From positions 1,426,001 through 1,490,000 of the forward strand of contig NZ_CP032570.1 of NCBI RefSeq assembly GCF_003626915.1: a stretch of 64,000 bases of DNA. Reading direction: 5' to 3'. The position numbers and the translations under genes are program-made. This document shows, one piece after another, positions 1-16,586 of this stretch. How positions within the stretch are numbered: the stretch's first letter is position 1; every line of letters starts with the position of its first letter. The notes beneath the pieces were generated by a model. It was not told the origin of the DNA. It saw nothing but the letters and a program-made list of their open reading frames with translations, and did not search any database. Origin of the DNA: Tsuneonella amylolytica (GTDB lineage: Bacteria > Pseudomonadota > Alphaproteobacteria > Sphingomonadales > Sphingomonadaceae).

Positions 1-78
1 CATGCACGCAACGAAGGCCTCGAACGGTCGCTTGCCGCGGATGCGGCGGGTCGCACCGGCGTCACCGAACAGGAGTAA
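1..78 (+). CDS. C-terminal end of an unidentified protein (partial)
   Basis: An open frame enters from the left edge and ends at TAA 76-78; only the last 25 residues (ending GRTGVTEQE) are visible, so the product cannot be recognised. The stop lies inside the AGGAG ribosome-binding site of the following amidotransferase gene (ATG at 82), which suggests this is the preceding gene of the same operon. Given the pathway gaps, it could be a nucleotide-sugar or cytidylyltransferase gene, but nothing in the short tail shows this. Confidence 0.55.
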   Translation, partial: HARNEGLERSLAADAAGRTGVTEQE

Positions 79-81
79 GAC

Positions 82-1284
82 ATGAAACGCTGCAACCCCT
101 GCGGCCTGCCCGAAACGCACGAAACCATCGCCTTCGATTCGGCGGGCACGTGCAACATCTGCCGCAACGTCGAATTCAAGCAGTCGGCGATCGACTGGGA
201 AGCGCGGCGCGAGGAACTCGGTCAGCTGATCGAGGAACATCGCGGCAAGTACGACTACGACTGCATCGTCCCGTTCAGCGGCGGCAAGGACAGCACCTGG
301 ACGCTGTACTACCTCGTTAAGGAATTCAACGTGAAGCCGCTGGTCGTCCGGTTCGACCACGGGTTCATGCGCCCCAACCTGGAAGACAACGTCAAGCGCG
401 TCTGCCGCGAACTGGGCGTCGACATCCACACTTTCACGCCGAACTGGCATGTCGTGCAGAAGCTGATGCTCCAGTCGTTCCTCGAGAAGGGCGACTTCTG
501 CTGGCACTGCCACACCGGCATCTTCAGCTACCCGATGTGGGTCGCGCTGGAGAAGCAGGTGCCGCTCATCTTCTGGGGCGAACCGTCGGCCGAATACACC
601 GCCTACTTCAGCTACGAGCAGGCCGAGGAAGTCGACGAGAAGCGCTTCAACCGCTTCGTGAACCTGGGCATCAGCGCCGACGACATGTTCGTGCGCCTGG
701 GCGGCGACGTCGATCCGCGCGATCTCAAGTGCTTCAGCTATCCGCCGCTGAAGGATCTTCGCAACCTCAACTACCGTTCGGTCTGCCTCGGTTCGTACAT
801 TCCCTGGGACGTCAAGAAGCAGTCGGCCATCATCATGGACGAGCTCGGCTGGCAGGGCGACGAGGTCGAGAACGTGCCCCCGCAGTACAACTACGAGAAG
901 ATCGAGTGCTACATGCAAGGGGTGCGCGACTACATCAAGTACATCAAGCGCGGGTACTCGCGCCCGTCGCACCTGGCCGCGATCGACATCCGCCACGGCC
1001 GCATCACGCCCGAGGAAGGCCGCAAGCTGGTCGCCGAGTACGAGGGCAAGCGTCCGCCGAGCCTCGACCTGTTCCTCGACTTCATCGGGATGAGCGAGGA
1101 GGAATTCCTCAAGGTCGCGATGAGCCATCAGGTGAGCCCTTACGAGCATCACCCGGAAGAAACCGAGGACGGGCGCAAGACGCACGACTTCGACCAGTGG
1201 ATGCGCGACGGTTCGATGGACCGCAACGTGGCCGAAAAGATGATCGAGCGCTGGCGGTCGAGGAACCGCATGGCGGACGCCTGA
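82..1284 (+). CDS. N-acetyl sugar amidotransferase (PseA/WbpG family)
   Basis: Probably converts an N-acetyl group on a nucleotide-activated sugar or nonulosonic acid to an acetamidino group, using ATP and ammonia from a HisH/HisF partner. The 400-residue protein has four N-terminal cysteines in two CxxC pairs (C4/C7 and C24/C27, zinc-ribbon-like) and a PP-loop ATP pyrophosphatase motif SGGKDS at residues 66-71. Length and layout match the WbpG/PseA/PtmG family of O-antigen and flagellin glycan loci. ATG at 82 has AGGAG at 71-75. The next two genes encode the glutaminase and ammonia-channel subunits, the same trio as wbpG-hisH2-hisF2 in Pseudomonas O-antigen clusters. The exact sugar substrate is inferred only from context. 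Confidence 0.88.
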   Translation: MKRCNPCGLPETHETIAFDSAGTCNICRNVEFKQSAIDWEARREELGQLIEEHRGKYDYDCIVPFSGGKDSTWTLYYLVKEFNVKPLVVRFDHGFMRPNLEDNVKRVCRELGVDIHTFTPNWHVVQKLMLQSFLEKGDFCWHCHTGIFSYPMWVALEKQVPLIFWGEPSAEYTAYFSYEQAEEVDEKRFNRFVNLGISADDMFVRLGGDVDPRDLKCFSYPPLKDLRNLNYRSVCLGSYIPWDVKKQSAIIMDELGWQGDEVENVPPQYNYEKIECYMQGVRDYIKYIKRGYSRPSHLAAIDIRHGRITPEEGRKLVAEYEGKRPPSLDLFLDFIGMSEEEFLKVAMSHQVSPYEHHPEETEDGRKTHDFDQWMRDGSMDRNVAEKMIERWRSRNRMADA

Positions 1285-1285
1285 C

Positions 1286-1921
1286 GTGTCGTTCGGGGCC
1301 TGCCACGTTGGGCTGATCGACTACGAGGCAGGCAACGTCCGGTCGATCGAGAACGCGCTCGATCACCTCGGCGCGCGCGTGTCGCTGGTCTCGCAGGCGA
1401 GCGATTTCGAAGGCAAGACGCACCTGCTGCTGCCGGGCGTCGGCGCGTTCGGGTACTGCGCGGACAAGCTGCGCGCGACCGGACTGGTTCCGCAGCTGAG
1501 ACAGTGGGCGATCGACGACGGTCGCCCGCTGCTCGGCATCTGCGTGGGCATGCAGCTCCTCGCCGACCGCGGTGAGGAACTGGGCACCCATGACGGGCTC
1601 GGCTTAGTCGGGGGCACCGTGCGCCCGCTGAAGGGCGACCCGCCGAGCGTGCGCATCCCCCACGTGGGCTGGAACGACGTGACCTTCGCCGACGATTTCG
1701 GCAGCTTCCGCGCGGGCGACACGGCCGACTTCTACTTCGACCACAGCTTCGCCTACCACGATCCCGTTCACGGCGAGACGCTGGGCACGGCCGAGCACGG
1801 CGAGCGGTTCTGCGCGATCGTGCGCCGGGGCAAGCTGGTCGCAAGCCAGTTCCATCCGGAAAAGAGCCAGCGGGCGGGCCTGCGCTTCCTCGAAGGTTTC
1901 CTGGGGATCGACCCGTGCTGA
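1286..1921 (+). CDS. hisH: HisH-like glutamine amidotransferase of the sugar amidotransferase system
   Basis: Class I glutamine amidotransferase that hydrolyses glutamine to release ammonia. The 211-residue protein keeps the full triad: nucleophile C86 in GICVGMQ, H190 and E192 in SQFHPEKS. It starts with GTG one base after the amidotransferase stop and its end overlaps the start of the HisF-like gene by 7 bases, so the three are translationally coupled. No other histidine biosynthesis gene is present here; by analogy with HisH2 of Pseudomonas it most likely feeds ammonia to the sugar amidotransferase rather than to imidazole glycerol phosphate synthesis. Confidence 0.9.
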   Translation: MSFGACHVGLIDYEAGNVRSIENALDHLGARVSLVSQASDFEGKTHLLLPGVGAFGYCADKLRATGLVPQLRQWAIDDGRPLLGICVGMQLLADRGEELGTHDGLGLVGGTVRPLKGDPPSVRIPHVGWNDVTFADDFGSFRAGDTADFYFDHSFAYHDPVHGETLGTAEHGERFCAIVRRGKLVASQFHPEKSQRAGLRFLEGFLGIDPC

Positions 1922-2703
1922 AGAAACGCATCGTGCCCAAGCTGCTCATTCGCCACCGGCAGGTGGGGCGTTCGATGCGCCCGGTGCTGGTGACGACGCG
2001 CGGCTATACCGAGACGATCGAGGTCGGCGACCCGGTCAGCCAGGCCAAGATCTACGAAGCGCAGATGGCCGACGAGCTCATCGTCCTCAACATCGACGGC
2101 ACGCCGATCGGCGGGGACGAGATGATGCTCGATCTCATCGCACGTCTCGCGAGCGAAACGTTCATGCCGCTCGCGGTGGGCGGCGGCGTGCGCACGGTGG
2201 AGGATTTCGGCACCCTGCTCGGCAGCGGGGCGGACAAGGTCTCAGTCAACCAGGCGGCGCTCGAAAACCCCGCGCTCATCGGGGAGGCGGCCGGCCGCTA
2301 CGGCGCGCAGGTCGTGGTCGTCTCGATCGACTACCGCACGGTCGAGGGCGCGCCGCAGGTATTCGTCGACAGCGCATCGAAGCCGACCGGGCGCACTCCG
2401 CAGGAGTGGGCGAAGGAAGCCGTATCGCGCGGAGCGGGCGAGATCCTGCTCACCAACGCCGATCGCGACGGCATGGGAAGCGGCCTCGACATCGATATCG
2501 CGCGCGAGATCGCCGACAGCGTCGACGTGCCGCTGATTCTTTCGGGCGGCTGCGGTCTGGGCGCTCACTTCGCCGCCGGCTTCATCGACGGCGGGGCCGA
2601 GGCGGTGGCTGCCGGGACCTATTTCTGCTTCCGAGACCAGAACCCGTTCCAGGCGCGGTCGCACATCGCCAACGCCGGCGTGCCGATCCGGATGGAAGTC
2701 TGA
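1915..2703 (+). CDS. hisF: HisF-like ammonia-channel subunit, sugar amidotransferase system
   Basis: TIM-barrel homologue of the HisF cyclase (262 residues), preserving glycine-rich phosphate-binding motifs such as LAVGGGVRT and LILSGGCG. The N-terminus differs from true HisF: the catalytic aspartate at position 11 (CLDV in bona fide HisF) is a leucine here (PKLLIRH), while the second catalytic aspartate region (VSIDYR) is kept. That argues against cyclase activity and for a role only in passing ammonia from HisH to the sugar amidotransferase, as in the WbpG-HisH2-HisF2 trio. Start is GTG at 1915, overlapping hisH by 7 bases; the stop TGA overlaps the next ATG by one base. Confidence 0.88.
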   Translation: MLKKRIVPKLLIRHRQVGRSMRPVLVTTRGYTETIEVGDPVSQAKIYEAQMADELIVLNIDGTPIGGDEMMLDLIARLASETFMPLAVGGGVRTVEDFGTLLGSGADKVSVNQAALENPALIGEAAGRYGAQVVVVSIDYRTVEGAPQVFVDSASKPTGRTPQEWAKEAVSRGAGEILLTNADRDGMGSGLDIDIAREIADSVDVPLILSGGCGLGAHFAAGFIDGGAEAVAAGTYFCFRDQNPFQARSHIANAGVPIRMEV

Positions 2704-3263
2704 TGGAGCTAACGCCCACCGCCGCGTGGCAGGACGACGAGGTTGAGCTGTTCCTGCTCGGCCCCGACGATGCCACCGAGGAATATGTCGGCTGGCTCAA
2801 CGATCCGCCGATCGCACAGTACCTCGAGAGCCGCTTCGCCCGGCATGACATCGAAGGGACGCGGCAATTCGTCGCCGACCAGCGCGCCCATCCCGGCGTG
2901 CTGTTTCTCGGCATCCGGAGCACGCCGCTCGGCCGCCACGTGGGCAACATCAAGCTCGGCCCCATTTCGCGTCAGCACGAGACCGGCGACATCGGCATCA
3001 TGATCGGCGCATCCGAAGCCTGGGGTCGTGGCATTGCCACCCGCGCCATCCGCCTGATCTGCGCCATCGCCCGCGACGAGCTCGGGCTGCGCAAGGTGAC
3101 GGCGGGTTGTTATGCCTCCAACGTGGGCAGCGAGCGCGCGTTCGAGCGCGCCGGCTTCGCGATCGAGGGGCGGCGGCCCGCGCAATTCCTGCTCGACGGC
3201 AAGCCCGAGGACATGATCCTAATGGGCCGCGTTTTCACCTCCGAGACCACGAAAGACGACTGA
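2703..3263 (+). CDS. GNAT-family N-acetyltransferase of the glycan locus
   Basis: A 186-residue GNAT acetyltransferase of the RimJ/RimL type. Visible features are a surface-glycan-style N-terminus (YVGWLNDPPIAQYLESR), the acetyl-CoA loop around EAWGRGIATRAIR, and a C-terminal GFAIEGRRPAQFLLDGK strand. Chosen start is ATG 2703, sharing one base with the hisF stop, which gives a normal GNAT length. Relatives acylate amino sugars in nonulosonic-acid and O-antigen pathways (PseH is one). As the locus also holds a GNAT domain fused to PseG, this may be the second of two acyltransferases acting on different amino groups; substrate unknown. Confidence 0.78.
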   Translation: MELTPTAAWQDDEVELFLLGPDDATEEYVGWLNDPPIAQYLESRFARHDIEGTRQFVADQRAHPGVLFLGIRSTPLGRHVGNIKLGPISRQHETGDIGIMIGASEAWGRGIATRAIRLICAIARDELGLRKVTAGCYASNVGSERAFERAGFAIEGRRPAQFLLDGKPEDMILMGRVFTSETTKDD

Positions 3264-3267
3264 CCCG

Positions 3268-4554
3268 ATGCGCAGCTTCACCACCTCGGAAGAATGGCTC
3301 GACCGCGCCGAACGCACGATCCCGCTCGGCAGCCAGACGTTCTCCAAGAGCCGGACCCAGTTCCCGCGCGGCATCTCGCCCTATTTCATCACCCGGGCCG
3401 ACGGCGCACGGGTATGGGACGCCGACGGCAACGAGTACGTCGACTTCATCAACAGCCAATGCTCGGTGACGCTCGGCTACAACGATCCCGACGTGACCGC
3501 CGCGGTGAAGGCGCAGCTGGAAAACGGGGTGATCTTCTCGCTCCCCCACCCGCTCGAGATGGAAGTCGCCGAGCGCATCGTCGCCATGGTGCCCTGCGCC
3601 GAGAAGGTGCGGTTCGGCAAGAACGGCTCCGACGCGACCGCCGGCGCGATCCGCATCGCACGCGCCTTCACCGGGCGCGACCGGGTGGCGGTGTGCGGCT
3701 ATCACGGCTGGCAGGACTGGTACATCGGCTCGACCGCGCGCAACCTCGGCGTGCCGCAGGCGACCCGCGATCTCACCAGCACGTTCGCCTTCAACGACGC
3801 CGATTCGCTCAAAGCCCTGCTCGATGCGCATCCGGGCGAGTTCGCCGCCGTCATCCTCGAGCCGATGAACGTCGCCTACCCCACGCCCGACTTCCTCGGC
3901 GCGGTGAAGGACCTTGCACATGCGCACGGTGCGCTGCTGGTGTTCGACGAGACCATCACGGGTTTCCGTTTCGCGAACGGCGGCGCGCAGGAGATGTTCG
4001 GCGTAACGCCCGACCTCGCGACTTTCGGCAAGGGGCTCGCCAACGGATACCCCGTTTCGGCGGTAACCGGCCGGGCCGACGTGATGAAACTGATGGAAGA
4101 CGTGTTCTTCTCGTTCACTTTCGGCGGCGAGACGCTGTCGCTCGCCGCGGCCAAGGCCACGCTCGACAAGCTGGCAAGCGGCCCGGTTCTGGCCAACATG
4201 CGCAAGACCGGCGAAGAAGTGTGCGCCGGGATCGAGGCGTTGATCGGCAAGCACGATCTTGGGCACATGCTGGCGGTCAGCGGCGACCCGACCTGGTCGT
4301 TCGTGAACTTCCGCGACACCGAAAACTACACCATGTGGGAGCTCAAGACGCTCTTCATGCAGGAGATCTTCGAGCGCGGGGTGCTGTCCTACGGCACGCA
4401 GAACATCTCGGCTTCGCACGGGCCGGAAGAAGTGCGCGCTCTGCTCGATGCCTACGACGCTGCCTTTGCCGCACTGGCCGATGCGGACGCCAACCGGTCC
4501 CTGGCGCAAGTGCTGCGCTGCAAGCCGCTCGAGCCGCTGTTCAAGGTTCGGTGA
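3268..4554 (+). CDS. Class III aminotransferase, glutamate-1-semialdehyde aminomutase-like
   Basis: Fold-type I PLP enzyme of 428 residues in the glutamate-1-semialdehyde 2,1-aminomutase family. Lys255 in TFGKGLANGYP should bind PLP and Asp227 in VFDETITGFRF should contact the pyridine nitrogen. The start (ATG 3268) lies 4 bases after the acetyltransferase stop. True HemL makes 5-aminolevulinate, but this copy lies inside a nonulosonic-acid operon, where such homologues are recurrent and probably aminate a sugar or an acyl precursor. It is not a DegT/PseC-type sugar aminotransferase, so it is not an obvious substitute for PseC. Reaction unknown. Confidence 0.8.
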   Translation: MRSFTTSEEWLDRAERTIPLGSQTFSKSRTQFPRGISPYFITRADGARVWDADGNEYVDFINSQCSVTLGYNDPDVTAAVKAQLENGVIFSLPHPLEMEVAERIVAMVPCAEKVRFGKNGSDATAGAIRIARAFTGRDRVAVCGYHGWQDWYIGSTARNLGVPQATRDLTSTFAFNDADSLKALLDAHPGEFAAVILEPMNVAYPTPDFLGAVKDLAHAHGALLVFDETITGFRFANGGAQEMFGVTPDLATFGKGLANGYPVSAVTGRADVMKLMEDVFFSFTFGGETLSLAAAKATLDKLASGPVLANMRKTGEEVCAGIEALIGKHDLGHMLAVSGDPTWSFVNFRDTENYTMWELKTLFMQEIFERGVLSYGTQNISASHGPEEVRALLDAYDAAFAALADADANRSLAQVLRCKPLEPLFKVR

Positions 4555-4562
4555 CCCGCGCG

Positions 4563-6128
4563 ATGCGGATCGTCTTCCGCACCGACGCATCCGACGCGAT
4601 CGGCACCGGCCACCTGATGCGGTGCCTGACGCTGGCGGATGCAGCCGCCACCGAAGGCCACATATGCACGTTCGTGATGCGCGAACATCCCGGCCGGCCC
4701 GAGGGGTTGGTCGAGGCCCGCGGCCATGCGCTCGTGGTGCTGCCGAGCAAAGCCGGTTTTCTTGGCGAGGACGATACCGGCGGCCCCAGTCTCGACCACG
4801 CGGATTGGCTTGGCGCTTCGCAGGCGGTCGATGCGCGGCAGACGGCTGCCGCCGTGGGCGACGGGTACGACTGGCTGGTGGCCGACCACTACGCGCTCGA
4901 CCATCGATGGGAGAGCTCGATGCGCGCCGCGGGCGGCGGGCGCATCATGACGATCGACGACCTTGCCGACCGGCTCCACGATTGCGACCTGCTGCTCGAC
5001 CAGAATCTGCAGGGAAGTGCCGGACGGTATGCGGGTCTGGTGCCGGCAGGCTGCCAGACCCTGATCGGCCCGCGCCATGCCCTGCTGCGTCCCGAGTTCG
5101 CCGCCCTCGCCAAGGAGATCGAGGGACCGCGCGCATTGCAGGCCGGCGCGCGCGTGCTCGTATACTTCGGCGGAATCGATCCCGACGGGGCGACGCTGGT
5201 CGTGCTCGAAGGTCTCGGCGCGCTCGACAAGGGACTGGCAGTCGATGTCGTGGCGGGTGCGCGCAATCCCCATCTGGCGGCGATCCGCGAGGCTGCCCGG
5301 CGGATGCCCGACACGCGCCTGTTCGAGGGAAATGCCGACATGCCCGCTCTGATGGCCGGAGCATCGCTGGCGATCGGCGCCGCCGGGGCAACCGCTTGGG
5401 AACGGTGCTGTCTCGCCCTACCCACAATCCTGATTACCATCGCCGAGAACCAGAAGCCGGGCGCCGCGGCGCTGGCCGACGCGGGGGCCGCGCTGTGGCT
5501 CGGCGACGTAGGCGAGGTGACACCCGGCGATGTAGCCCGGTCGGTCGCGGCGTTGACGGACGATCCCGTGCGCGCGGCCGCGCTCGGCGAGACGGCACGC
5601 TCGCTGTGCGACGGGGCCGGCGCCGGCCGTGTGCTCGCGGCGCTGTCCGCGCCCCGCACCCGGCTGCGCCTCGCCGCGCCCGACGACTGCGAAACCGTTT
5701 TCGCCTGGCGCAACCATCCCGATACACGCCGTTTCTTCCACGATCCCGCGCCCGTCGCGATCGCCGACCACCGCGCGTGGTTCGCCCGGACCATCGCAGA
5801 TCCCGATCGCAGGCTGTGGATCGGCGAGGAAGACTCTGGCGCCACCGGGGTCGTGCGGTTCGACCGCGATGCCGACGAAGCGAGCGCGCTGATCTCGGTC
5901 TATCTCGTTCCCGGCGAGGGCGGCCGCGGCGCCGGTGCGCGGCTGATCGCGGCCGGGTGCGCCGAAGCGGCCGCCGGCTGGCCCGGCCTGACCGCCATCG
6001 ATGCGGAAATCCTGCCCGAGAATATCGCCTCGGCGGGGGCCTTCGCAAAGGCGGGCTTTGTGCCCTATGGCGCCCGCGACGCGCATCGCTGGCGCCTGAC
6101 ACTGCCCCGAGGAGCACGACCGCAATGA
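4563..6128 (+). CDS. pseG: PseG-type UDP-sugar hydrolase fused to a GNAT acetyltransferase
   Basis: Two-domain protein of 521 residues. Residues 1 to about 360 match PseG, which releases UDP from UDP-2,4-diacetamido-2,4,6-trideoxy-beta-L-altropyranose in pseudaminic acid synthesis: the GTGHLMR motif carries the putative catalytic His17, and GAAGATAWERC forms the UDP-binding C-lobe of this GT-B-like fold. Residues from about 363 form a GNAT domain (RLRLAAPDDCETVFAWRNHP at its start, GEGGRGAGARLIA as acetyl-CoA loop), resembling PseH, the N4-acetyltransferase of the preceding step. A fusion would join consecutive steps in one chain. ATG 4563 follows the previous stop by 8 bases, and the stop overlaps the next ATG (ATGA). 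Confidence 0.85.
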   Translation: MRIVFRTDASDAIGTGHLMRCLTLADAAATEGHICTFVMREHPGRPEGLVEARGHALVVLPSKAGFLGEDDTGGPSLDHADWLGASQAVDARQTAAAVGDGYDWLVADHYALDHRWESSMRAAGGGRIMTIDDLADRLHDCDLLLDQNLQGSAGRYAGLVPAGCQTLIGPRHALLRPEFAALAKEIEGPRALQAGARVLVYFGGIDPDGATLVVLEGLGALDKGLAVDVVAGARNPHLAAIREAARRMPDTRLFEGNADMPALMAGASLAIGAAGATAWERCCLALPTILITIAENQKPGAAALADAGAALWLGDVGEVTPGDVARSVAALTDDPVRAAALGETARSLCDGAGAGRVLAALSAPRTRLRLAAPDDCETVFAWRNHPDTRRFFHDPAPVAIADHRAWFARTIADPDRRLWIGEEDSGATGVVRFDRDADEASALISVYLVPGEGGRGAGARLIAAGCAEAAAGWPGLTAIDAEILPENIASAGAFAKAGFVPYGARDAHRWRLTLPRGARPQ

Positions 6129-6832
6129 CCACCGTACTCGTCGTCGCCGCCCATCCCGACGACGAATTGCTCGGATGCGCCGGCACGCTCGTCCGCCACG
6201 TGCGGGCCGGCGACCGGGTCGCGATCGCGATCCTGGCCGAAGGCGCCACCTCGCGTTCCTCGGCGGACGGCCGCGACGAGCACGCCGCCGAACTCGAGCG
6301 GTTGCGCGATGCCGCGCGCGCCGCAGCCGCCACGATCGGTGCGGAACCGCCGGAGTTCTTCGGACTGCCCGACAACCGGATGGACGGCGAGGTGCTGCTC
6401 GACGTCGTCCACCGGCTGGAGGCGACGGTGGCGCGGGTGAAGCCCGACATCGTCTACACCCACCATCGCGGCGACGTGAACATCGACCACGACGTGACCC
6501 ATCGCGCGGTCATTACCGCCTGCCGTCCGCTTCCCGGCCACACCGTGACGCGCATCCTTGCGTACGAAACCGTATCGAGCACCGAATGGATGAGCCCGGC
6601 GAGCGCCCCGCCCTTCGCCCCCAACTGGTTCGTCGACATCTCGGACGCGCTCGAGACCAAGATAGCCGCGCTGCGTTGCTACGAGGCCGAAATGCGCCCC
6701 TTCCCGCACCCGCGTTCGTACCAGGCGGTCGAGCACCTCGCCCGCTGGCGCGGCGCAAGCGCCGGATTCAAGGCGGCCGAGGCGTTCATGCTCGTGCGCC
6801 AGACGGTGCCGAAAGGTGGCCAGGACCGATGA
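6125..6832 (+). CDS. PIG-L family N-acetyl sugar deacetylase
   Basis: LmbE/PIG-L zinc-dependent deacetylase of 235 residues. The metal-binding motif AHPDDE (H10, D12, D13) is at the N-terminus, and HHRGDVNIDHDVTHR supplies the second histidine cluster typical of the family. These enzymes remove acetyl from N-acetyl sugars or conjugates. Its start overlaps the PseG-GNAT stop and its end overlaps the formyltransferase start (both ATGA), tying it to its neighbours. The likely role is to free an amino group on a sugar or nonulosonic acid so that the next enzyme can place a formyl or other group on it; that coupling is inference. Confidence 0.85.
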   Translation: MTTVLVVAAHPDDELLGCAGTLVRHVRAGDRVAIAILAEGATSRSSADGRDEHAAELERLRDAARAAAATIGAEPPEFFGLPDNRMDGEVLLDVVHRLEATVARVKPDIVYTHHRGDVNIDHDVTHRAVITACRPLPGHTVTRILAYETVSSTEWMSPASAPPFAPNWFVDISDALETKIAALRCYEAEMRPFPHPRSYQAVEHLARWRGASAGFKAAEAFMLVRQTVPKGGQDR

Positions 6833-7524
6833 CCGAAGTCGTCGTCTCCAGTCGTCCGTGGCATGGCGGACTGGCGGAGCGCCTCGCGCGCAAGACCGGC
6901 CGGCCGTTCGTACAGATCGGCACGCGGGGGGAATTCACCGCGGACCACCTCGCGGCGATCGGGGCCACGCGCGTGTTCGTGCCGCACTGGTCGAAAATAA
7001 TTCCCGAATCCGTCTTCGGCGCATTCGAGACGATCATCTTCCACATGACGGACCTGCCCTATGGCCGGGGCGGATCTCCGTTGCAGAACCTGATCGTGCG
7101 CGGACACGGCGAGACGATGATCAGCGCGCTGCGCTGCGAGGCGGGGCTCGACACCGGGCCCGTCTACATGAAGCGCCCGCTGTCGCTCGAAGGTACGGCA
7201 CAGCAGATTTTCGAGCGCGCGGGCGACATTATCGAAGGCATGATTGCCGAGATTGTCGCGAACGATCCCGAGCCGCAGGCGCAAACGGGCGAGGTAACCG
7301 AGTTCCGCCGGCGCAAGCCCGCCGACGGTGATCTCGCCCCGCTGTCCGATCCGGAACGGGTATTCGACCATATCCGCATGCTCGATGCAGAGGGGTATCC
7401 ACGCGCGTTCGTCGATTGCGGACCGTGGCGCATCGAGTTCGAGGACGCTCGCTTCGACGGGCAGGAAACAACCGCGAAGGCACGCTTTGTGCTGCGCGAC
7501 GCCGACGCTAAAGGGAAGCCATGA
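6829..7524 (+). CDS. Formyltransferase-like enzyme of the nonulosonic-acid locus
   Basis: A 231-residue relative of methionyl-tRNA formyltransferase and sugar N-formyltransferases, which use N10-formyl-tetrahydrofolate. The motif FHMTDLPYGRGGSP (71-84) replaces the usual NxHxSxLPxxRG, and LDTGPVY carries Asp108. Against the Asn106/His108/Asp144 triad of E. coli Fmt, His72 and Asp108 are kept with identical spacing (36) but the asparagine position is Ile70. The same motif occurs, to my recollection, in the PseJ-type formyltransferases of pseudaminic acid loci. The ATGA overlap with the deacetylase gene suggests a deacetylate-then-formylate pair. The C-terminal third looks like a small accessory domain. 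Confidence 0.78.
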   Translation: MTEVVVSSRPWHGGLAERLARKTGRPFVQIGTRGEFTADHLAAIGATRVFVPHWSKIIPESVFGAFETIIFHMTDLPYGRGGSPLQNLIVRGHGETMISALRCEAGLDTGPVYMKRPLSLEGTAQQIFERAGDIIEGMIAEIVANDPEPQAQTGEVTEFRRRKPADGDLAPLSDPERVFDHIRMLDAEGYPRAFVDCGPWRIEFEDARFDGQETTAKARFVLRDADAKGKP

Positions 7525-8573
7525 CACCTTTTCAGATCGAAGACTTCACCATCGACACCTACGCCCCGCCGCTGGTGATCGCCGAGGTCAGCGCCAACCA
7601 CAACCACTCGCTCGACCGGGCGCTGGAGATCGTCGATGCGGCCGCCGCGGCAGGCGCCAACGCGATCAAGCTGCAGACCTACACCGCCGACACGATGACG
7701 ATCGATCACTCGGAAGGCGAATTCTTCATCTCCGACCCGAACTCGCTGTGGAACGGCACGTCGCTCTACGACCTCTACAAGGAGGCCTACACCCCCTGGG
7801 AGTGGCACAAGCCGATCTTCGACCGCTGCCGCGAACACGGCATGATCGGCTTCTCCACCCCGTTTGATCCAACGGCGGTCGACTTTCTGGAAGATCTCGG
7901 GGTCCCCTGCCACAAGATCGCCAGCTTCGAGAACGTCGACCTGCCGCTGATCGCCAAGGTCGCGCGGACCGGCAAACCGATGATCATGTCGACCGGGATG
8001 GCGACTGCCGCCGAGATCGACGAGGCGGTCCGCACCGCGCGCGAGAACGGGTGCGAAAACCTCATCCTGCTGAAATGCACGAGTTCGTATCCGGCCGATC
8101 CGGCGAGCTCCAACCTGCTCACCATCCCCCACCTGCGCGAGATGTTCGGCTGCCACACCGGCCTGTCCGATCACACGATGGGCATCGGCGCGGCGGTCGC
8201 GGCCACGGCGCTGGGCGCAGTCGCGATCGAAAAGCACCTGACGATCGCCCGCGAGGACGGCGGGGTCGATTCGGCATTCTCGATGGAGCCGGACGAGCTC
8301 GCCGCGCTGGTCCGCGAGACGCGGACCGCCGCCGCGGCGCGGGGCACGGTGTCCTACGGCCCGAGCGAGGCCGAGAAGGGCAGCCTCGTCTTCCGCCGGT
8401 CGATCTACGTGGTGGAGGACGTCGCCGCTGGCGAGGAGCTGACCGAGACGAACCTGCGTCTCATCCGCCCCGGCCTCGGCCTCGCGCCCAAGCACTACGC
8501 CGACCTCGTCGGCAAGCGCGTCTCGCGCGACGTCAAGCGCGGTACGCCGGCGAGCTGGGACCTGATCGGCTGA
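7521..8573 (+). CDS. pseI: Pseudaminic acid synthase
   Basis: NeuB-family enzyme of 350 residues that condenses a 6-deoxy amino hexose with phosphoenolpyruvate to give a nonulosonic acid. The TIM-barrel NeuB domain (about 1-280) carries EVSANHNHSLDRALEIVDAA, KLQTYTADTMT and the metal-site region GLSDHTMG, and the C-terminal SAF (antifreeze-like) domain starts near residue 290 with RRSIYVVEDVAAGEEL. The wording of the N-terminal motif and the neighbouring PseG favour pseudaminic acid (PseI) over sialic (NeuB) or legionaminic (LegI) acid synthase. The start overlaps the formyltransferase stop by 4 bases; it is the last gene of the operon. Confidence 0.9.
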   Translation: MTPFQIEDFTIDTYAPPLVIAEVSANHNHSLDRALEIVDAAAAAGANAIKLQTYTADTMTIDHSEGEFFISDPNSLWNGTSLYDLYKEAYTPWEWHKPIFDRCREHGMIGFSTPFDPTAVDFLEDLGVPCHKIASFENVDLPLIAKVARTGKPMIMSTGMATAAEIDEAVRTARENGCENLILLKCTSSYPADPASSNLLTIPHLREMFGCHTGLSDHTMGIGAAVAATALGAVAIEKHLTIAREDGGVDSAFSMEPDELAALVRETRTAAAARGTVSYGPSEAEKGSLVFRRSIYVVEDVAAGEELTETNLRLIRPGLGLAPKHYADLVGKRVSRDVKRGTPASWDLIG

Positions 8574-8595: not shown

Positions 8596-9822
8596 TCAGG
8601 GGCGCGGCGCGGCTCCGTTCCCTCGCTGCAGAAAGCGCCGCGGGATCAGCGAGCCGGTGAGGATCGCAAGCTGCACCGACTTCGCGGCCGCCATCGCAAG
8701 AAGATAGCCCGTCGTCCCGGCGCCCTGCGTCCACGCCGCCCCCGCCCCGATCACGAGCACCGCCGCCGCCGACCCCGCCGCCAGCGTCACGACCCGCTCC
8801 CGGTCGATCGCCACTACGGCGTATTCCAAGACCACGCACAGGAACGTGATCGAGACGAAGCAGGCGATGCCGACCTCGAGCAGGCCGATGTCGTACTTGG
8901 CCAGAAGGGCGTGGCCCACTTCGAAGTTCACTCCCCCGAATGCGGCCGCCAGGAGCGCGAGCGAAGTGCCGACGATGGCGGCCGCCGGAAACGACAATAG
9001 CCGCAGCGTGGGGCGCAGGCTCGCGCCCGCGCGCTGGACCTTGATGATCTGCGGCCCCGTCTTCTGGGCGAGGATGTTGACCACCACCTGACCGATCTGC
9101 GCGAACATCAACGCAAAGGCATAGGAGCCCGCAATGGCCGGCCCGGCCAGCGCCGCGACGACAGCGCGGTCGCCGCTGCCGATCATGTTCACCAGCAGGG
9201 CCGAGGTATAGAGATTGTAGTCGGCGGGTGCCTTCACCGGCGCCGCGCCGAACGGCAGCAGGTGCCGCAACGACCATGTGCCTTGCACCGTGATGAGCGC
9301 CATCGCCGCGATCTCGCCCACCAGGGCGCCGGTCCAGCCGTAAAGAAAACCGCCCAGCGGAACGAGCACGAACGCGGAGATCGAGCGGATGAAGCTGTAG
9401 CGCCAGATGAGGCCGGCATCGCCGATGCTGAGGTTGAGCGCGGACACCACGCGCCCGATGAGCGTGATGAGCGCCAGCGGCACGGCCAGCACCGTGAACA
9501 CGACTCCGTCCACACCCGCGATCAGGTAGCCGGCCGGGACCGCTGCGAGCGAACCCGCCAGGGTCAGCTTCGTCACGCGGAGCGATATCCACTTCGACGC
9601 GCCCACGAGCAAATCGGTCTCGCCGTCGGCCCAGTAGCGGGGGAAGCGCTTTATCGTCCCCTCGAGCAGGCCGAAGGACAGCAAGGCGGAGCCGACCGTC
9701 GCGGCACCCGCGGCACCCGCATAGGAACCGAACTGCGCGGCCGGCATTACCAGCGCCAGCACGAGCAGCTTGGCAAAGCCGAACGCGGCGGCCGCCCCCA
9801 TCATGACGATATAGACTGGCAT
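8596..9822 (-). CDS. Polytopic flippase-like polysaccharide export protein (Wzx type)
   Basis: Integral membrane protein of 408 residues with about 10 to 12 hydrophobic segments, alternating with short arginine-rich loops such as KRFPRYWADGETD. The pattern and length fit the MATE-like oligosaccharide flippase superfamily (Wzx, PST), which moves lipid-linked repeat units across the inner membrane. It is convergent with pseI (22 bases between stops) and divergent from the polymerase-like gene. Context in the glycan locus supports the role; the assignment rests on hydrophobicity and position rather than on a catalytic motif. Confidence 0.7.
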   Translation of the reverse strand: MPVYIVMMGAAAAFGFAKLLVLALVMPAAQFGSYAGAAGAATVGSALLSFGLLEGTIKRFPRYWADGETDLLVGASKWISLRVTKLTLAGSLAAVPAGYLIAGVDGVVFTVLAVPLALITLIGRVVSALNLSIGDAGLIWRYSFIRSISAFVLVPLGGFLYGWTGALVGEIAAMALITVQGTWSLRHLLPFGAAPVKAPADYNLYTSALLVNMIGSGDRAVVAALAGPAIAGSYAFALMFAQIGQVVVNILAQKTGPQIIKVQRAGASLRPTLRLLSFPAAAIVGTSLALLAAAFGGVNFEVGHALLAKYDIGLLEVGIACFVSITFLCVVLEYAVVAIDRERVVTLAAGSAAAVLVIGAGAAWTQGAGTTGYLLAMAAAKSVQLAILTGSLIPRRFLQRGNGAAPRP

Positions 9823-10059: not shown

Positions 10060-11313
10060 GTGAAGAAAGCGCTTTATCTCGTCGCGCTATTGTTTTGCCT
10101 GTTTCCCTATACGCAGATCATTCCGCTTGCGTCCTACACCCAGCCCTACGCTCTGGTGTTCAGTACGATGGCGGCAATCGTCGCGATACCGTTGGTGCAG
10201 GACAAGTTTCCGCGCGGCGACCTCACCGCACTGACGATCCTGGCGATGGCCGGCGTCCTCGGCTTCGTGGTGTCTTGCCTGCCGAACCCCTCCCCGCAGG
10301 ACTTCAAATACCTGCTGATTTACGTCTCGCCGCTCGTTTTCGCGGTGGCCGCCTTCGCGGTGACGCTGGAAGACCCCAAGATGGCCGATCGCGTCATCGT
10401 GTTCGCAGCCGGGGCATGGGTCCTTGTCGGTCTGATTCAGACGGTCATCAGCCCATCGTTCATGACGCAGCTCGTCGGCGAATTCAGCGATGCGGGCGAG
10501 GTTGTTATCGAATCGGGGCGCGGTACGCTCGGCTTCGCGCCCGAACCGACCCACTTCGGGTTTCACATGATCATCCTCGCCGCGCTCCTAGCGCTCGTCG
10601 GTGGGCGCAACCTCTTAGCGCTAGCCTGCCTGGCGACAGCCGTCCTTATCGCCCGTTCATCGAGCGCGGTGCTCGCGCTGTCGCTGGGCACGATCATCTA
10701 CCTTGCCGTATTCGGCCGGTGGGGCCGCTGGCTGCTGATCGCGATCGTGCCGCTCTATTTCATTCTCGGCGGCATTCTCGATTCCGGGCTGCTGCCAAAC
10801 GACCTGCGCGTGGTCCAGTTGCTCAAGTCATTCTACGAGGATCCGTGGTACCTGATCACCGCCGATACCAGCGCGAACATGCGTCTGGGAGGTATCTGGG
10901 TCGGGCTGCAGGAAAGCTTCGAACGCGGCTTCATCCCGGCCGGGCTCAATTCGGCGCAATGGGAAGCGGCCGTAGGCCCGATCATGGCGAGGAACCCGTG
11001 GCTCATCGGCCTCAGCCCGGCCGGCATCGCATCGGGCCTGCTCATCGTCGTCTATCAGCTCGGTGTGCTCGGGCTGGGACTCATGATCTATTTGACGGTG
11101 CGGATGCTGCGCGGCCTCCGATCGCATTTCGAGACCTTCCTGCTGTGCTCGGTCGTCTTCGTGTTCATGTCGCAGTACATGATCTCGACCCCGGGATACG
11201 GCCTGATCCTCGGCGTACTGGCGGCACGCCGCGTGCTTGCCGAGCGGGCCGATCTCGGGCAACGGCTGTCCGCCCCGACCACGCCGCCCAACCGGGCCCT
11301 GGCGGTCGCCTGA
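10060..11313 (+). CDS. O-antigen polymerase/ligase-like membrane protein
   Basis: A 417-residue polytopic protein with about 10 transmembrane helices and one large hydrophilic loop (about residues 240-310, from SGLLPNDLRVVQLLKSFYED to VGPIMARNPWLIG), the layout of Wzy polymerases and WaaL ligases. GTG at 10060 is taken as start because AAAGG lies 6 bases upstream and the hydrophobic N-terminus MKKALYLVALLFCLFPYT begins there; a longer in-frame reading upstream is not coding-like. It probably polymerises or transfers repeat units made by this locus, working with the divergent flippase. Family members share little sequence, so the role is inferred. Confidence 0.65.
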   Translation: MKKALYLVALLFCLFPYTQIIPLASYTQPYALVFSTMAAIVAIPLVQDKFPRGDLTALTILAMAGVLGFVVSCLPNPSPQDFKYLLIYVSPLVFAVAAFAVTLEDPKMADRVIVFAAGAWVLVGLIQTVISPSFMTQLVGEFSDAGEVVIESGRGTLGFAPEPTHFGFHMIILAALLALVGGRNLLALACLATAVLIARSSSAVLALSLGTIIYLAVFGRWGRWLLIAIVPLYFILGGILDSGLLPNDLRVVQLLKSFYEDPWYLITADTSANMRLGGIWVGLQESFERGFIPAGLNSAQWEAAVGPIMARNPWLIGLSPAGIASGLLIVVYQLGVLGLGLMIYLTVRMLRGLRSHFETFLLCSVVFVFMSQYMISTPGYGLILGVLAARRVLAERADLGQRLSAPTTPPNRALAVA

Positions 11314-14091: not shown

Positions 14092-15393
14092 TCAACTCGC
14101 CAGCCTGAGCGGCGGACGCGCGGGCGAGCGCGAGGCATCCGGCCAGATCCCGCGCGTGTCGTAGATCGCTGCGCCCACGCGCTCTTCCGGCGGGACGACG
14201 CGGAAGACGTCGTGATCGACCAGCACCACCAGCACGCCGCACGTCTCCAGCGCGGTGTCGATGTCGACCAGCGTCGCCCCGGTCCCTTCGAATTCGCGCG
14301 GGAGTTCGCGGGCGTAGGGCTCGACGATCCGCACCCGTTCGCCGAACTTTCGTGCCAGGCTGGCGGCGACGTAGCGCGCCGGGCTCTCGCGAAAGTCGTC
14401 GATGTTCGCCTTGAACGCCAGGCCTAGACAGGCGACCGGCACGCCCGGATGTGCCTCGACCAGCTCGGTCGCTTTCGCGACGACGTGGTGCATCTTGGCG
14501 TCGTTGACCTCGCGCGCGGTGCGGATGATCTTCGCTTCTTCCGGTGCGCCGTGGACGATGAACCACGGATCGACCGCGATGCAGTGCCCGCCCACGCCGG
14601 GGCCTGGCTGGAGGATGTCGACCCGCGGGTGCCGGTTGGCGAGGCGGATGACCTCCCACACGTCGAGCCCCATGCGATCGGCGATCATGCTGAGTTCGTT
14701 GGCGAACGCGATGTTGGTGTCGCGATAGGCGTTCTCAACCAGCTTGGTCATCTCGGCGCTGCGCGCATCGGTGGTGACGCAGGTACCGCGCACGAAGAGC
14801 TTGTAGAACGCCAGCGCCTTCCTCGCGCAGCGCGGGGTGATTCCGCCGATCGAGCGGTCGTTGTGCGTCAGTTCTTCCAGGATGCGTCCCGGCAGCACGC
14901 GTTCGGGGCAATAGGCGATCGACACGTCGGGCCGCCCCTCGGCGATGCCGGGCATGGCGAGATCGGGGCGGAGCGCCGCCAGCCGGTCGCGCAGCGCTTC
15001 GGTGGTGCCCACCGGCGAGGTCGATTCGAGGATTACGCAGTCGCCCTTTTTCAGCACCGCGGCGACATTGGTCGCGGCCGCGATCACGTAGCTGATGTCG
15101 GGCGTGTGATTGCCGTCCTTTTCGAACGGGGTCGGCACCGCGATGACGAAGACGTCGGCCGCCGCGATCTCGGTCGACGCGCGCAAGGTGCCGCGCTGAA
15201 CCATCGCCTGGACCAGACCGTCGAGATCGGCTTCCTCGATGTGGATTTCGCCGCGGTTGATCGTGTCGACGACGCGTTGGCTCACGTCGATACCGGTCAC
15301 ACGGCAATTGCTGCGCGCGATCACCGCCGCGGTCGGCAGCCCGATATAGCCGAGGCCGATGACGCACACTTCCGGATTGGTTTCGCCGCGCAT
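14092..15393 (-). CDS. wecC: UDP-N-acetyl-D-mannosamine dehydrogenase
   Basis: Oxidises UDP-ManNAc at C6 to UDP-ManNAc uronic acid with two NAD+. The 433-residue protein has an N-terminal Rossmann motif VIGLGYIGLPTA, the central helix ENAYRDTNIAFANELSMIA, the catalytic-cysteine motif GVGGHCIAVDPWF and a C-terminal domain starting GLAFKANIDDFRESPA, all typical of WecC/UDP-sugar 6-dehydrogenases. It lies downstream of wecB on the same strand, 68 bases away, so substrate and enzyme are encoded together. Its last bases run up to the convergent acyltransferase gene with a 3-base gap. Confidence 0.93.
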   Translation of the reverse strand: MRGETNPEVCVIGLGYIGLPTAAVIARSNCRVTGIDVSQRVVDTINRGEIHIEEADLDGLVQAMVQRGTLRASTEIAAADVFVIAVPTPFEKDGNHTPDISYVIAAATNVAAVLKKGDCVILESTSPVGTTEALRDRLAALRPDLAMPGIAEGRPDVSIAYCPERVLPGRILEELTHNDRSIGGITPRCARKALAFYKLFVRGTCVTTDARSAEMTKLVENAYRDTNIAFANELSMIADRMGLDVWEVIRLANRHPRVDILQPGPGVGGHCIAVDPWFIVHGAPEEAKIIRTAREVNDAKMHHVVAKATELVEAHPGVPVACLGLAFKANIDDFRESPARYVAASLARKFGERVRIVEPYARELPREFEGTGATLVDIDTALETCGVLVVLVDHDVFRVVPPEERVGAAIYDTRGIWPDASRSPARPPLRLAS

Positions 15394-15437
15394 GATATTC
15401 CCGCAATTGGTTTCGCGCGCAGGCTATAGGCGGAAGG

Positions 15438-15449
15438 GGTAAATTTACC
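15438..15449. promoter_or_regulatory. 12-bp perfect palindrome between wecB and wecC (possible operator)
   Basis: GGTAAATTTACC reads the same on both strands and is flanked by a further GGTAAC half-copy at 15450-15455. It sits in the 68-base wecB-wecC gap, upstream of wecC, next to a TATAGC stretch (15423-15428, minus strand) that could be a -10 element. AT-rich symmetric sites are rare in this GC-rich window. A regulator-binding function is inference only. Confidence 0.3.
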
Positions 15450-15461
15450 GGTAACGGTGTT

Positions 15462-16586
15462 TCAGCGCGCGGCCATCAGATCGACTATGCGTGCGGTCGC
15501 CCTGCCGTCGCCGAACGGATTGTGCGCCTTCGCCATCGCCTCGTAGGCGTGCGGATCGTCGAGCAGCCGGTTTGCCTCCGCCACGATGCGGTCCGCGTCG
15601 GTGCCCACAAGCCTGGCGGTCCCGGCCGCAATTCCTTCCGGCCGCTCGGTCGTCTCGCGCATCACCAGCACCGGCTTCCCCAGCGCGGGCGCTTCCTCCT
15701 GTACTCCGCCGCTGTCGGTCAGCATCAGGGTGCTGATCGCCAGAAGGCGCGCGAAGTGCGGGTAGTCGAGCGGCTCGATCAGGGCGACGTTGTCCAGCCC
15801 CGCGAGCCGCTCGTTCATCACGGCGCGCACGTTGGGATTGAGGTGGACGGGAAAGATCACCGCAACGTCGTCGCGTTCGGCGAGGCGGCGGACCGCCGAG
15901 GCGATTCCCTCCATCCCGTCGCCGAAGTTCTCCCGCCGATGGCTGGTCATCCCGATGATGCGCTTGCCCGCGAACCGCCGCTCCAGATCGGCGAGACCCG
16001 CCGCGAGAGCGGGCTCGCGTTCGATCTTTGCGGTCACCCAGTGGAGCGCGTCGATGACCGTGTTGCCGGTCACGTGTATCGTCTCGGGCGCGACGTTCTC
16101 GCGGCGCAGCGCTTCCGCCGCGGTTTCGGTGGGGGCGAAGTGCAGCGCGGCGAAGGCGCCCACGATTTTGCGGTTAACCTCTTCCGGCCACGGATGGTGG
16201 ATGTTGCCGCTCCGCAGGCCGGCTTCGACGTGCGCGACAGGAATCTTGCGGTAATAGGCTGCCAGAGCGCCGGCCATCGCGGTCGCGGTGTCGCCCTGCA
16301 CCACGACCCAGTCGGGCCGTTCGGCGTCGAGCACGCGGCCGATCCCGGTAAGGAGGTTGGCGGTCAGCGCGTCGAGCGTCTGGTCGGGCTGCATAAGGTC
16401 GAGATCGTGGCCCGGCACGATGCCCGCAATCTCGAGAACCTGGTCGAGCATGCCGCGATGCTGGCCCGATACGCAGGTCCGGCTCTCGAACCGCTCGTCG
16501 GCGGCCAGCGCATGCACAAGCGGGAAGAGCTTGATCGCTTCCGGCCGGGTGCCGAACACGGTGAGGACCTTGCGGACGTTCGTCAT
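15462..16586 (-). CDS. wecB: UDP-N-acetylglucosamine 2-epimerase (non-hydrolysing)
   Basis: Interconverts UDP-GlcNAc and UDP-ManNAc. The 374-residue length and motifs fit the family: FGTRPEAIKLFPL at the N-terminus, VQGDTATAMAGALAAYY, HVEAGLRSGN, TSHRRENFG and the UDP-site motif DSGGVQEEAP. It lies between rmlB and wecC on the minus strand, so it can make the substrate for the adjacent dehydrogenase. Gap to rmlB is 50 bases, compatible with one transcript rmlB-wecB-wecC. Confidence 0.94.
   Translation of the reverse strand: MTNVRKVLTVFGTRPEAIKLFPLVHALAADERFESRTCVSGQHRGMLDQVLEIAGIVPGHDLDLMQPDQTLDALTANLLTGIGRVLDAERPDWVVVQGDTATAMAGALAAYYRKIPVAHVEAGLRSGNIHHPWPEEVNRKIVGAFAALHFAPTETAAEALRRENVAPETIHVTGNTVIDALHWVTAKIEREPALAAGLADLERRFAGKRIIGMTSHRRENFGDGMEGIASAVRRLAERDDVAVIFPVHLNPNVRAVMNERLAGLDNVALIEPLDYPHFARLLAISTLMLTDSGGVQEEAPALGKPVLVMRETTERPEGIAAGTARLVGTDADRIVAEANRLLDDPHAYEAMAKAHNPFGDGRATARIVDLMAAR

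What the first reader, a model, noticed from the sequence alone, without database searches (positions are those of the whole stretch)
82..8573. Nonulosonic-acid operon with three kinds of N-substituent chemistry
One tightly overlapping operon combines a sugar amidotransferase with its own HisH/HisF, two GNAT acyltransferases (one free, one fused to PseG), a PIG-L deacetylase, a formyltransferase, a class III aminotransferase and PseI. Each family is known in glycan loci, but together they suggest a pseudaminic-type acid carrying amidino and formyl or other acyl groups, which could be an undescribed sugar. PseB, PseC and PseF are not visible and may lie to the left.
Basis: partly seen in the sequence, partly recalled or inferred. 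Interest (0 to 1): 0.7.

Follow-up and report, generated by a model that had tools for sequence, protein, structure and literature searches.

The report
Operon for a triamino sialic-like sugar
A 14-gene bacterial operon makes an unusual sialic-acid-like surface sugar that probably carries a third amino group plus formyl, acetyl and amidino decorations, which would explain a widespread but unexplained pair of genes in sugar clusters of many bacteria and some phages.

Summary
The genome to the left supplies the missing steps: pseB, pseC, an aldo/keto reductase (AKR) and an SpsF-type CMP-transferase (no PseF equivalog). It is one 14-gene, 13.6-kb operon in a Wza/Wzc/Wzy polysaccharide locus; no flagellin was found in the genome.

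PseB, PseC, PseG and PseI pass their curated cut-offs, so the skeleton is pseudaminic-type. A WbuX-type amidotransferase with dedicated HisH/HisF predicts an acetamidino group. New here: the class III aminotransferase (AT3) goes with AKR. Among complete Pse loci, AKR occurs in 11 of 13 with AT3 but 1 of 21 without (p=3e-6); AKR or a Gfo/Idh oxidoreductase, both only once, lies near AT3 in 87 of 119 loci. I read AKR+AT3 as an OH-to-NH2 module, most likely at C8, giving a 5,7,8-triamino acid. PIG-L accompanies the formyltransferase-like gene in 20 of 20 loci, suggesting acetyl-to-formyl exchange.

The core order is in print for Aeromonas islands, and most of the set for a Legionella O-antigen locus, without a function for the pair. 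C8 amination is inferred, not shown.

The parts
1..78 (+). 3' end of the SpsF-type cytidylyltransferase gene (starts at window coordinate -716); candidate CMP-nonulosonate synthetase
   Evidence: PF02348 93.8 bits; PseF TIGR03584 only 23.6 of 205.7
82..1284 (+). N-acetyl sugar amidotransferase (WbuX/WbpG type), predicted to turn an N-acetyl into N-acetimidoyl
   Evidence: TIGR03573 329 bits over cut-off 203; one PDB relative at E <= 0.001, 8wex; SGGKDS PP-loop at residue 66
1286..1921 (+). HisH-type glutaminase, ammonia source for the amidotransferase
   Evidence: PF00117; TIGR01855 175 bits; Cys and His-Glu motifs GICVG and FHPEK
1915..2703 (+). HisF-type (WbuZ-like) partner, not the housekeeping HisF
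   Evidence: PF00977 183 bits; best NCBIfam WbuZ (below cut-off); two stronger HisF/HisA-type matches elsewhere in the genome; Asp of the CLDV motif of that HisF lost here (KLLI)
2703..3263 (+). free GNAT acyltransferase, proposed to acylate the amine that is then amidinated
   Evidence: PF13302 69 bits; GNAT1-type gene next to HisF/NatAT in 4 of 10 AT3 loci that have NatAT
3268..4554 (+). class III aminotransferase (AT3), GSAM-like fold, proposed to aminate the C8 ketone
   Evidence: PF00202 175 bits; HemL equivalogs below cut-off; AlphaFold model pLDDT 91; closest PDB folds GSAM and FumI; Lys255 and Asp227 invariant
4563..6128 (+). PseG UDP-sugar hydrolase (N-terminal) fused to a PseH-like GNAT (C-terminal, about 5655-6062)
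   Evidence: TIGR03590 285 bits over 154; PF13302 46.8 over 25.4; TIGR03585 50.8 below 93.1
6125..6832 (+). PIG-L family de-N-acetylase
   Evidence: PF02585 92.5 bits; AHPDDE at residue 9, HRGDVNIDHDVTH at residue 114
6829..7524 (+). formyltransferase-like protein of the PF21553 / PDB 1zgh type (FMT)
   Evidence: PF21553 66.5 bits; PDB 1zgh E 5.6e-57; His and Asp of the triad kept, Asn replaced
7521..8573 (+). PseI, pseudaminic acid synthase; last gene of the operon
   Evidence: TIGR03586 488.5 bits over 340

Best explanation
The operon (window -5074 to 8573) makes a CMP-activated nonulosonic acid of pseudaminic skeleton for a Wzy-type surface polysaccharide. PseB and PseC turn UDP-GlcNAc into the 4-amino-L-altro sugar; the PseH-like GNAT fused to PseG acylates it; PseG frees the sugar; PseI adds pyruvate; SpsF makes the CMP sugar. 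AKR and AT3 form an added OH-to-NH2 module: AKR oxidises a free hydroxyl (Pse has only C4 and C8), most likely C8, to the methyl ketone, and AT3 aminates it, giving a 5,7,8-triamino-3,5,7,8,9-pentadeoxynonulosonic acid. PIG-L removes one N-acetyl (probably N5) and the formyltransferase-like enzyme re-acylates that amine. The free GNAT acetylates a third amine, which NatAT/HisH/HisF convert to acetamidino. Predicted product: three amines bearing acetyl, formyl and acetimidoyl (residue 342.154 Da). Shown here: gene content, family membership, operon structure, AKR-AT3 and PIG-L-FMT linkage. Inferred: every chemical step specific to AKR, AT3, PIG-L and FMT, and all positions.
For: Pse skeleton enzymes over curated cut-offs. 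AKR in 11 of 13 complete Pse loci with AT3, 1 of 21 without, p=3e-6; PIG-L 8/13 vs 0/21; FMT 5/13 vs 0/21; NatAT no difference, 2/13 vs 4/21. Three of the 21 come from genomes that have an AT3 elsewhere; without them AKR is 11/13 vs 1/18, p=1e-5. Within 6 kb of AT3, AKR or Gfo/Idh in 87 of 119 loci, both in 1 (Gfo/Idh identity of three seeds by Pfam): alternative oxidoreductases beside one aminotransferase, the recalled logic of WbpB/WbpE and GnnA/GnnB. SpsF fused to AT3 in 35 of 119. AKR tetrad Asp/Tyr/Lys/His (recalled) kept in 24 of 24. The AT3 model fits FumI with TM 0.91-0.92 by target length, the highest of the 50 chains listed; FumI acts on a carbon next to a methyl (recalled). An 8-amino NulO of manno type is known from Flexibacter maritimus (PMC3210612, passages). 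Aeromonas subgroups IA-IC have pseB-pseC-reductase-pseF-class III aminotransferase-pseG-pseI (PMC7874193), and A. hydrophila AH-1 flagellin carries a 403 Da glycan (PMC4691044, abstract start only): odd mass, so an odd number of N. FMT over 60 bits always with PIG-L, 20 of 20. Two amines are too few for two GNATs, FMT and amidotransferase.
Against: Legionella Sg6/Sg12 list AKR-, AT3-, SpsF- and amidotransferase-type genes (PMC3694923), yet the O-chain of non-1 serogroups is reported as a 5,7-diamino acid (title of a cited paper, not read). 403 Da also fits a diamino core with seryl or with acetamidino plus glyceroyl, and AH-1's subgroup was not stated in what I read. AKRs usually reduce. In some phage loci AT3 follows PseB with no PseC found, which could mean 4-amination. 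AKR or Gfo/Idh was not found near AT3 in 32 of 119 loci, and in 12 of the 39 cellular ones. GSAM structures have slightly better fold E-values than FumI, and by query length FumI (0.88) ties with one. The FMT family lacks the canonical Asn, and four further AT3 loci have weak formyltransferase matches (26-34 bits) without PIG-L. The two samples were drawn by different queries, the HMMs were trained on AT3 loci, and loci are not phylogenetically independent.
Confidence: 0.5

Rival explanations
1. Diamino pseudaminic acid with amidino and formyl or other acyl groups; AKR and AT3 only change stereochemistry, for example by oxidation, transamination or reduction at C5, C7 or C8.
For: Legionella Sg6 lists AKR-, AT3- and amidotransferase-type genes while the reported non-1 O-chain is a 5,7-diamino acid with acetamidino; epimerising modules that act on a CMP-activated NulO are proposed in Acinetobacter (PMC5595891, passages).
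Against: Leaves more N-modifying enzymes than amines; oxidoreductase-aminotransferase pairs usually add nitrogen (recalled); an 8-amino Pse-like sugar exists; odd mass in AH-1.
Confidence: 0.2
2. The pair runs the other way: PIG-L frees an amine, AT3 removes it as a ketone, AKR reduces the ketone to a hydroxyl.
For: AKRs are typical reductases (recalled); PIG-L is enriched with AT3 (8/13 vs 0/21).
Against: PIG-L was not found in 5 of 13 complete AT3 loci; installing an amine with PseC only to remove one would be wasteful; no such product known to me.
Confidence: 0.08
3. The OH-to-NH2 step is at C4 of the nonulosonic acid, not C8.
For: C4 and C8 are the only free hydroxyls of Pse.
Against: The only precedent found is 8-amino; FumI, the best-fitting fold by target length, acts next to a terminal methyl (recalled).
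Confidence: 0.1
4. AT3 is a second nucleotide-sugar 4-aminotransferase acting on the PseB ketone, making a different sugar or replacing PseC.
For: In phage loci such as L088, L091, L093 and L098 AT3 follows PseB and no DegT enzyme was found in the held stretch.
Against: In the window and 12 other complete loci PseC is present as well; ring 4-ketone aminotransferases of sugars are DegT-type (recalled).
Confidence: 0.12

Closest known systems
Aeromonas Group I flagellin glycosylation islands (PMC7874193; section 16 whole, other passages)
   Same: subgroups IA-IC: pseB-pseC-'alpha/keto reductase' (taken by me as AKR)-pseF-class III aminotransferase-pseG-(pseH)-pseI, the same core order; ID and IE share it up to the aminotransferase but lack pseG; IE has a deacetylase; Group I strains put a single NulO on flagellin
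   Different: subgroups IF and IG lack reductase and aminotransferase; no amidotransferase set or formyltransferase listed for Group I; flagellar location, whereas no flagellin was found in this genome and the operon sits with Wza/Wzc/Wzy; no function given to the pair
Legionella pneumophila Sg6/Sg12 O-antigen locus Lp6_762-775 (PMC3694923; section 10 and passages)
   Same: table lists GNAT, PseG, GSA-aminomutase, acylneuraminate cytidylyltransferase, acetyltransferase, HisF, HisH, 'LPS biosynthesis protein' at the NatAT place, aldo/keto reductase, DegT, CapD, capsule protein, NeuB
   Different: no PIG-L or formyltransferase listed; order differs; sequences not compared here; product reported as a 5,7-diamino acid
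Flexibacter (Tenacibaculum) maritimus O-polysaccharide sugar (PMC3210612; passages)
   Same: an 8-amino-3,5,7,8,9-pentadeoxynonulosonic acid of manno type, the product class predicted here
   Different: free 8-amine; 3-hydroxybutyryl and acetyl on N5/N7 (the passage gives both assignments), C8 configuration undetermined; biosynthetic genes not examined by me
Campylobacter/Helicobacter CMP-Pse pathway
   Same: PseB, PseC, PseG, PseI
   Different: SpsF instead of PseF; AKR, AT3, PIG-L, FMT and a HisH/HisF-dependent amidotransferase added
Shewanella Kdo8N module KdnA/KdnB/KdsB (recalled)
   Same: works like: alcohol oxidation, transamination, dedicated CMP transferase
   Different: not tested for homology; KdnA is DegT-type and KdnB an alcohol dehydrogenase (recalled)

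Membership tests
Pseudaminic acid pathway | PseB, PseC, PseG, PseI over curated cut-offs | tested here: met
   TIGR03589 505.5/407.8, TIGR03588 530.4/423.5, TIGR03590 285/153.6, TIGR03586 488.5/340.3
Pseudaminic acid pathway | PseH equivalog | tested here: not met
   fused GNAT scores 50.8 against 93.1; the free GNAT has no TIGR03585 match at E <= 0.001
Pseudaminic acid pathway | PseF equivalog | tested here: not met
   23.6 against 205.7; SpsF-type CTP_transf_3 instead
N-acetyl sugar amidotransferase system (WbuX/WbpG with HisH/HisF) | amidotransferase over cut-off next to HisH and HisF distinct from the histidine enzymes | tested here: met
   TIGR03573 329/203; two stronger HisF/HisA-type matches elsewhere in the genome; catalytic Asp lost in operon HisF; WbuZ model itself below cut-off, 233/300
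Glutamate-1-semialdehyde aminomutase (HemL) | HemL equivalog cut-off | tested here: not met
   TIGR00713 253.8/527.3; PRK06209 388/486
Glutamate-1-semialdehyde aminomutase (HemL) | conserved substrate-binding Arg32 (recalled numbering) | tested here: not met
   residue 29, aligned to it by my reading, is Arg in 2 of 17 and 5 of 24 rows; Lys27 is invariant instead
Formyltransferase | Asn-His-Asp catalytic triad (recalled) | tested here: not met
   His and Asp conserved in 18 sequences, Asn position replaced; Formyl_trans_N 25.6 against 26.1
PIG-L de-N-acetylase | family cut-off and AHPDDE motif | tested here: met
   PF02585 92.5/28.2; motif at residue 9
8-amino nonulosonic acid pathway | C8 amine in the product | not testable with these tools
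   needs chemistry; paper searches listed no pathway for it

The most novel reading that the evidence does not exclude
AKR (or Gfo/Idh) plus AT3 is the general C8-amination module of nonulosonic acids, spread through bacteria and tailed phages, and this operon is its most decorated form seen here: an 8-amino-8-deoxypseudaminic acid carrying acetyl, formyl and acetamidino groups on its three amines.
Probability: 0.4. Interest if true: 0.75.

Novelty: new variant of a known kind. Interest (0 to 1): 0.6.

Why it matters
If right, it assigns a function to a reductase and a class III aminotransferase that occur beside pse genes in many bacteria (for example Aeromonas flagellin islands) and were listed without one in the papers I saw. 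It would give a gene-level route to 8-amino nonulosonic acids, which I found only as a polysaccharide structure, and would let surface sugars with three amines be predicted from genomes. It also predicts masses that existing flagellin and polysaccharide data can be checked against.

Tried and rejected
Rejected: AT3 as a true HemL (below cut-offs, key Arg not conserved); HisH/HisF as the histidine genes; flagellar role in this genome (no PF00669 match). Led nowhere: two scans of genome contigs meant to reach Tenacibaculum maritimum, by a 16S pattern and a fusA primer, gave 0 hits each, so the planned test of the 8-amino precedent by its genome failed. H38, a 'phage' record with AT3, is a 74% GC contig without annotation whose AT3 has diverged at the GYHGW motif; not used. 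The paper on the T. maritimum O-antigen cluster is not held. In one search the stretch window:10200-11310 was read in the wrong frame; read in the right frame, again without a family.

Dropped before counts: 26 of 39 loci of the AT3 sample and 19 of 40 loci of the PseC sample did not hold PseB, PseC and PseG or PseI over my thresholds (some are cut by contig ends). Of the 50 PseC places over the cut-off, 40 were fetched; the other 10 are this genome and nine genomes already held from the AT3 sample. Three loci counted as without AT3 (L193, L204, L212) lie in genomes with an AT3 outside the stretch, L212 about 12 kb from it; the counts without them are given. L198 and L202 come from one genome. 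A loose search of the 21 loci (E <= 10) gave no PIG-L or AT3, and one weak formyltransferase match, in L204. At 90% identity the 119 AT3 proteins form 110 groups.

What I saw of each paper: PMC11812311 whole text; PMC7874193 section 16 and passages; PMC3694923 section 10 and passages; passages only of PMC3210612, PMC5595891, PMC7371886, PMC7439481, PMC7867332, PMC5109656, PMC13317340, PMC7281560, PMC4052302, PMC9853564, PMC13414609, PMC5561996; PMC4691044 listing with the start of its abstract.


Full report
What is there. The window is bases 1426001-1490000 of a single-contig 2.79-Mb genome. Reading left of the window (L005; window coordinate = L005 coordinate - 14000) adds five genes: pseB (-5074 to -4061), a capsule-synthesis-type gene (PF05159, 20.3 bits against 20; -4052 to -2727), pseC (-2730 to -1573), an aldo/keto reductase (-1576 to -698) and an SpsF-type cytidylyltransferase (-716 to 78). 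All 14 genes are on one strand, with spacings of -19 to +8 bp over 13,648 bp.

Families. PseB, PseC, PseG and PseI pass their NCBIfam equivalog cut-offs; PseH and PseF do not. The amidotransferase passes TIGR03573. Its HisF partner scores best with the amidation-associated WbuZ model (below cut-off), lacks the first catalytic Asp when aligned to the HisF-type protein elsewhere in the genome, and the genome has two stronger HisF/HisA-type matches. So the acetamidino function is well supported by family, though not shown. B. subtilis spsF is needed for legionaminic acid to reach the spore surface, not for its synthesis (PMC7439481, passages), which fits SpsF as the CMP-sugar step.

Setting. Upstream lie a sugar transferase, a nucleotidyl transferase, Wzy_C, Wza-type export and Wzc-type genes. 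Downstream on the + strand are an epimerase, a protein with only a weak GumK_N match and a hexapeptide transferase; on the - strand UDP-GlcNAc 2-epimerase, a UDP-sugar dehydrogenase and a GDP-mannose/dTDP-glucose dehydratase-type protein. No flagellin match was found in the genome. The product therefore most likely goes to a surface polysaccharide, not to flagella. None of the 18 same-family genomes listed has an AT3 match at E <= 1e-100 (four candidates per genome were scored there), so the locus looks sporadic in its family.

AT3 and its partners. AT3 matches occur in 29 of 289 genomes of the class (E <= 1e-60) and 19 of 398 of the phylum (E <= 1e-100), this genome counted in both. I annotated 119 AT3 loci (own, 38 cellular, 80 IMG/VR contigs, the latter the best 80 of 90) with HMMs made from the operon's proteins and their relatives. 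L046 has a counterpart of 13 of the 14 genes, all but the capsule-type one, with SpsF fused to AT3. SpsF and AT3 share one ORF in 35 of 119 loci. To see which genes go with AT3 rather than with Pse in general, I compared complete Pse loci: AKR 11 of 13 with AT3, 1 of 21 without (p=3e-6); PIG-L 8/13 vs 0/21 (p=7e-5); FMT 5/13 vs 0/21 (p=0.005); SpsF 11/13 vs 8/21 (p=0.013); PseF-type motif 2/13 vs 8/21 (p=0.25); NatAT 2/13 vs 4/21 (p=1). Three of the 21 lie in genomes with an AT3 outside the stretch; without them AKR is 11/13 vs 1/18 (p=1e-5), PIG-L 8/13 vs 0/18 (p=2e-4), FMT 5/13 vs 0/18 (p=0.008). Loose searches of the 21 (E <= 10) found no further AKR and no PIG-L, and one weak formyltransferase match in L204. 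Of the two AT3 loci without AKR, L039 has a Gfo/Idh-type oxidoreductase beside AT3 and L050 has one 3.2 kb away. Over all 119 loci, AKR lies within 6 kb in 36, Gfo/Idh in 52, both in 1, neither in 32 (three Gfo/Idh seeds confirmed by Pfam); about 16 would hold both if independent. I read them as alternative partners for one step. The amidotransferase looks like an independent add-on.

Mechanism. An NAD(P) oxidoreductase next to an aminotransferase is a usual way to turn a sugar hydroxyl into an amine (recalled: WbpB/WbpE, GnnA/GnnB, KdnB/KdnA). After PseB, PseC and PseI, only the hydroxyls at C4 and C8 are free. C8 is a CHOH next to a methyl. The AT3 model (pLDDT 91) fits FumI with TM 0.91-0.92 by target length, the highest of the 50 chains listed, while GSAM structures have slightly better E-values and one ties by query length; FumI acts on a carbon next to a methyl (recalled). 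An 8-amino nonulosonic acid of manno type is known from Flexibacter maritimus (PMC3210612, passages). With a third amine the enzyme set balances: PseH-like GNAT, free GNAT, FMT and amidotransferase for three amines. FMT genes over 60 bits were found in 20 of 119 AT3 loci, always with PIG-L and adjacent to it in 18; PIG-L without FMT in 10; four more loci (L095, L101, L120, L130) have weak formyltransferase matches of 26-34 bits and no PIG-L. This suggests that PIG-L frees the amine that FMT acylates.

Independent hint. The core order is printed for Aeromonas subgroups IA to IC, where the 'alpha/keto reductase' (which I take as AKR) and the class III aminotransferase have no stated function; ID and IE share it up to the aminotransferase, IF and IG lack both (PMC7874193, section 16). 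A. hydrophila AH-1 is cited there as a single-NulO example for Group I or III; the A. hydrophila strains of those groups are 27 in IA, 2 in IB and 2 in IIIC. Its flagellin glycan is 403 Da (PMC4691044, abstract start in a listing), an odd mass and so an odd number of nitrogens; AH-3, of Group II, for which no such pair is described, carries 376.14 Da. Diamino solutions exist for 403 (seryl, or acetamidino plus glyceroyl), so this is a hint, not proof.

Against. L. pneumophila Sg6/Sg12 lists most of the set without PIG-L and FMT (PMC3694923 Table 1), and the non-1 O-chain is reported as 5-acetamidino-7-acetamido, a diamino acid (reference title; paper not read). Either that analysis missed an amine, that serogroup differs, or AKR/AT3 do something else. 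The FMT family keeps His and Asp but not the Asn of formyltransferases in 18 sequences, so 'formyl' is the least certain substituent. In some phage loci AT3 replaces PseC in position. In 32 of 119 loci no AKR or Gfo/Idh was found near AT3.

Novelty. The library searches led to gene lists with this core but, in what I read, to no paper giving AKR and AT3 a function in nonulosonic acid synthesis; most subscription journals are absent from the library. I rate it a new variant of a known kind: each enzyme family is known, the core is in print, and the full set with PIG-L, FMT and amidotransferase and the proposed C8-amination logic are new to me.

Noticed in passing
L094, L098, L088, L071 and other IMG/VR loci: Phages carry nonulosonate cassettes with AT3, PseB, PseI, SpsF, FMT and PIG-L. 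L094 has portal and major head genes on one side and a virion structural gene on the other; L098 has a late sigma factor, L088 a clamp loader and exonuclease, L071 an exonuclease (10 flanking proteins of four loci scanned, 7 with a match).
   Followed up: partly
L088, L091, L093, L094, L098, L102: AT3 close after PseB with no DegT-type PseC found in the held stretch; a Gfo/Idh oxidoreductase or AKR is nearby in some of them.
   Followed up: partly
6829-7524 and 17 relatives: Formyltransferase-like family (PDB 1zgh type) with the catalytic Asn position replaced and a conserved (S/T)PxQN motif.
   Followed up: partly
L180: SpsF::AKR fusion in a Pse locus without AT3 but with NatAT, HisH and HisF; a bifunctional SpsF-like/aldo-keto reductase protein is described in a Vibrionaceae/Moritella study (PMC7371886, passages).
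   Followed up: no
window -4052 to -2727 (L005:9948-11273): A capsule-synthesis-type gene (PF05159, weak) sits between pseB and pseC; Legionella Sg6 lists a capsule polysaccharide protein in its cluster.
   Followed up: no
8596-9822 (-) and about 10201-11313 (+): Hydrophobic-looking proteins where Wzx and Wzy would be expected; no Pfam family at the limits used.
   Followed up: no
14092-16586 (-): UDP-GlcNAc 2-epimerase and UDP-sugar dehydrogenase on the other strand suggest ManNAcA in the same polysaccharide.
   Followed up: no
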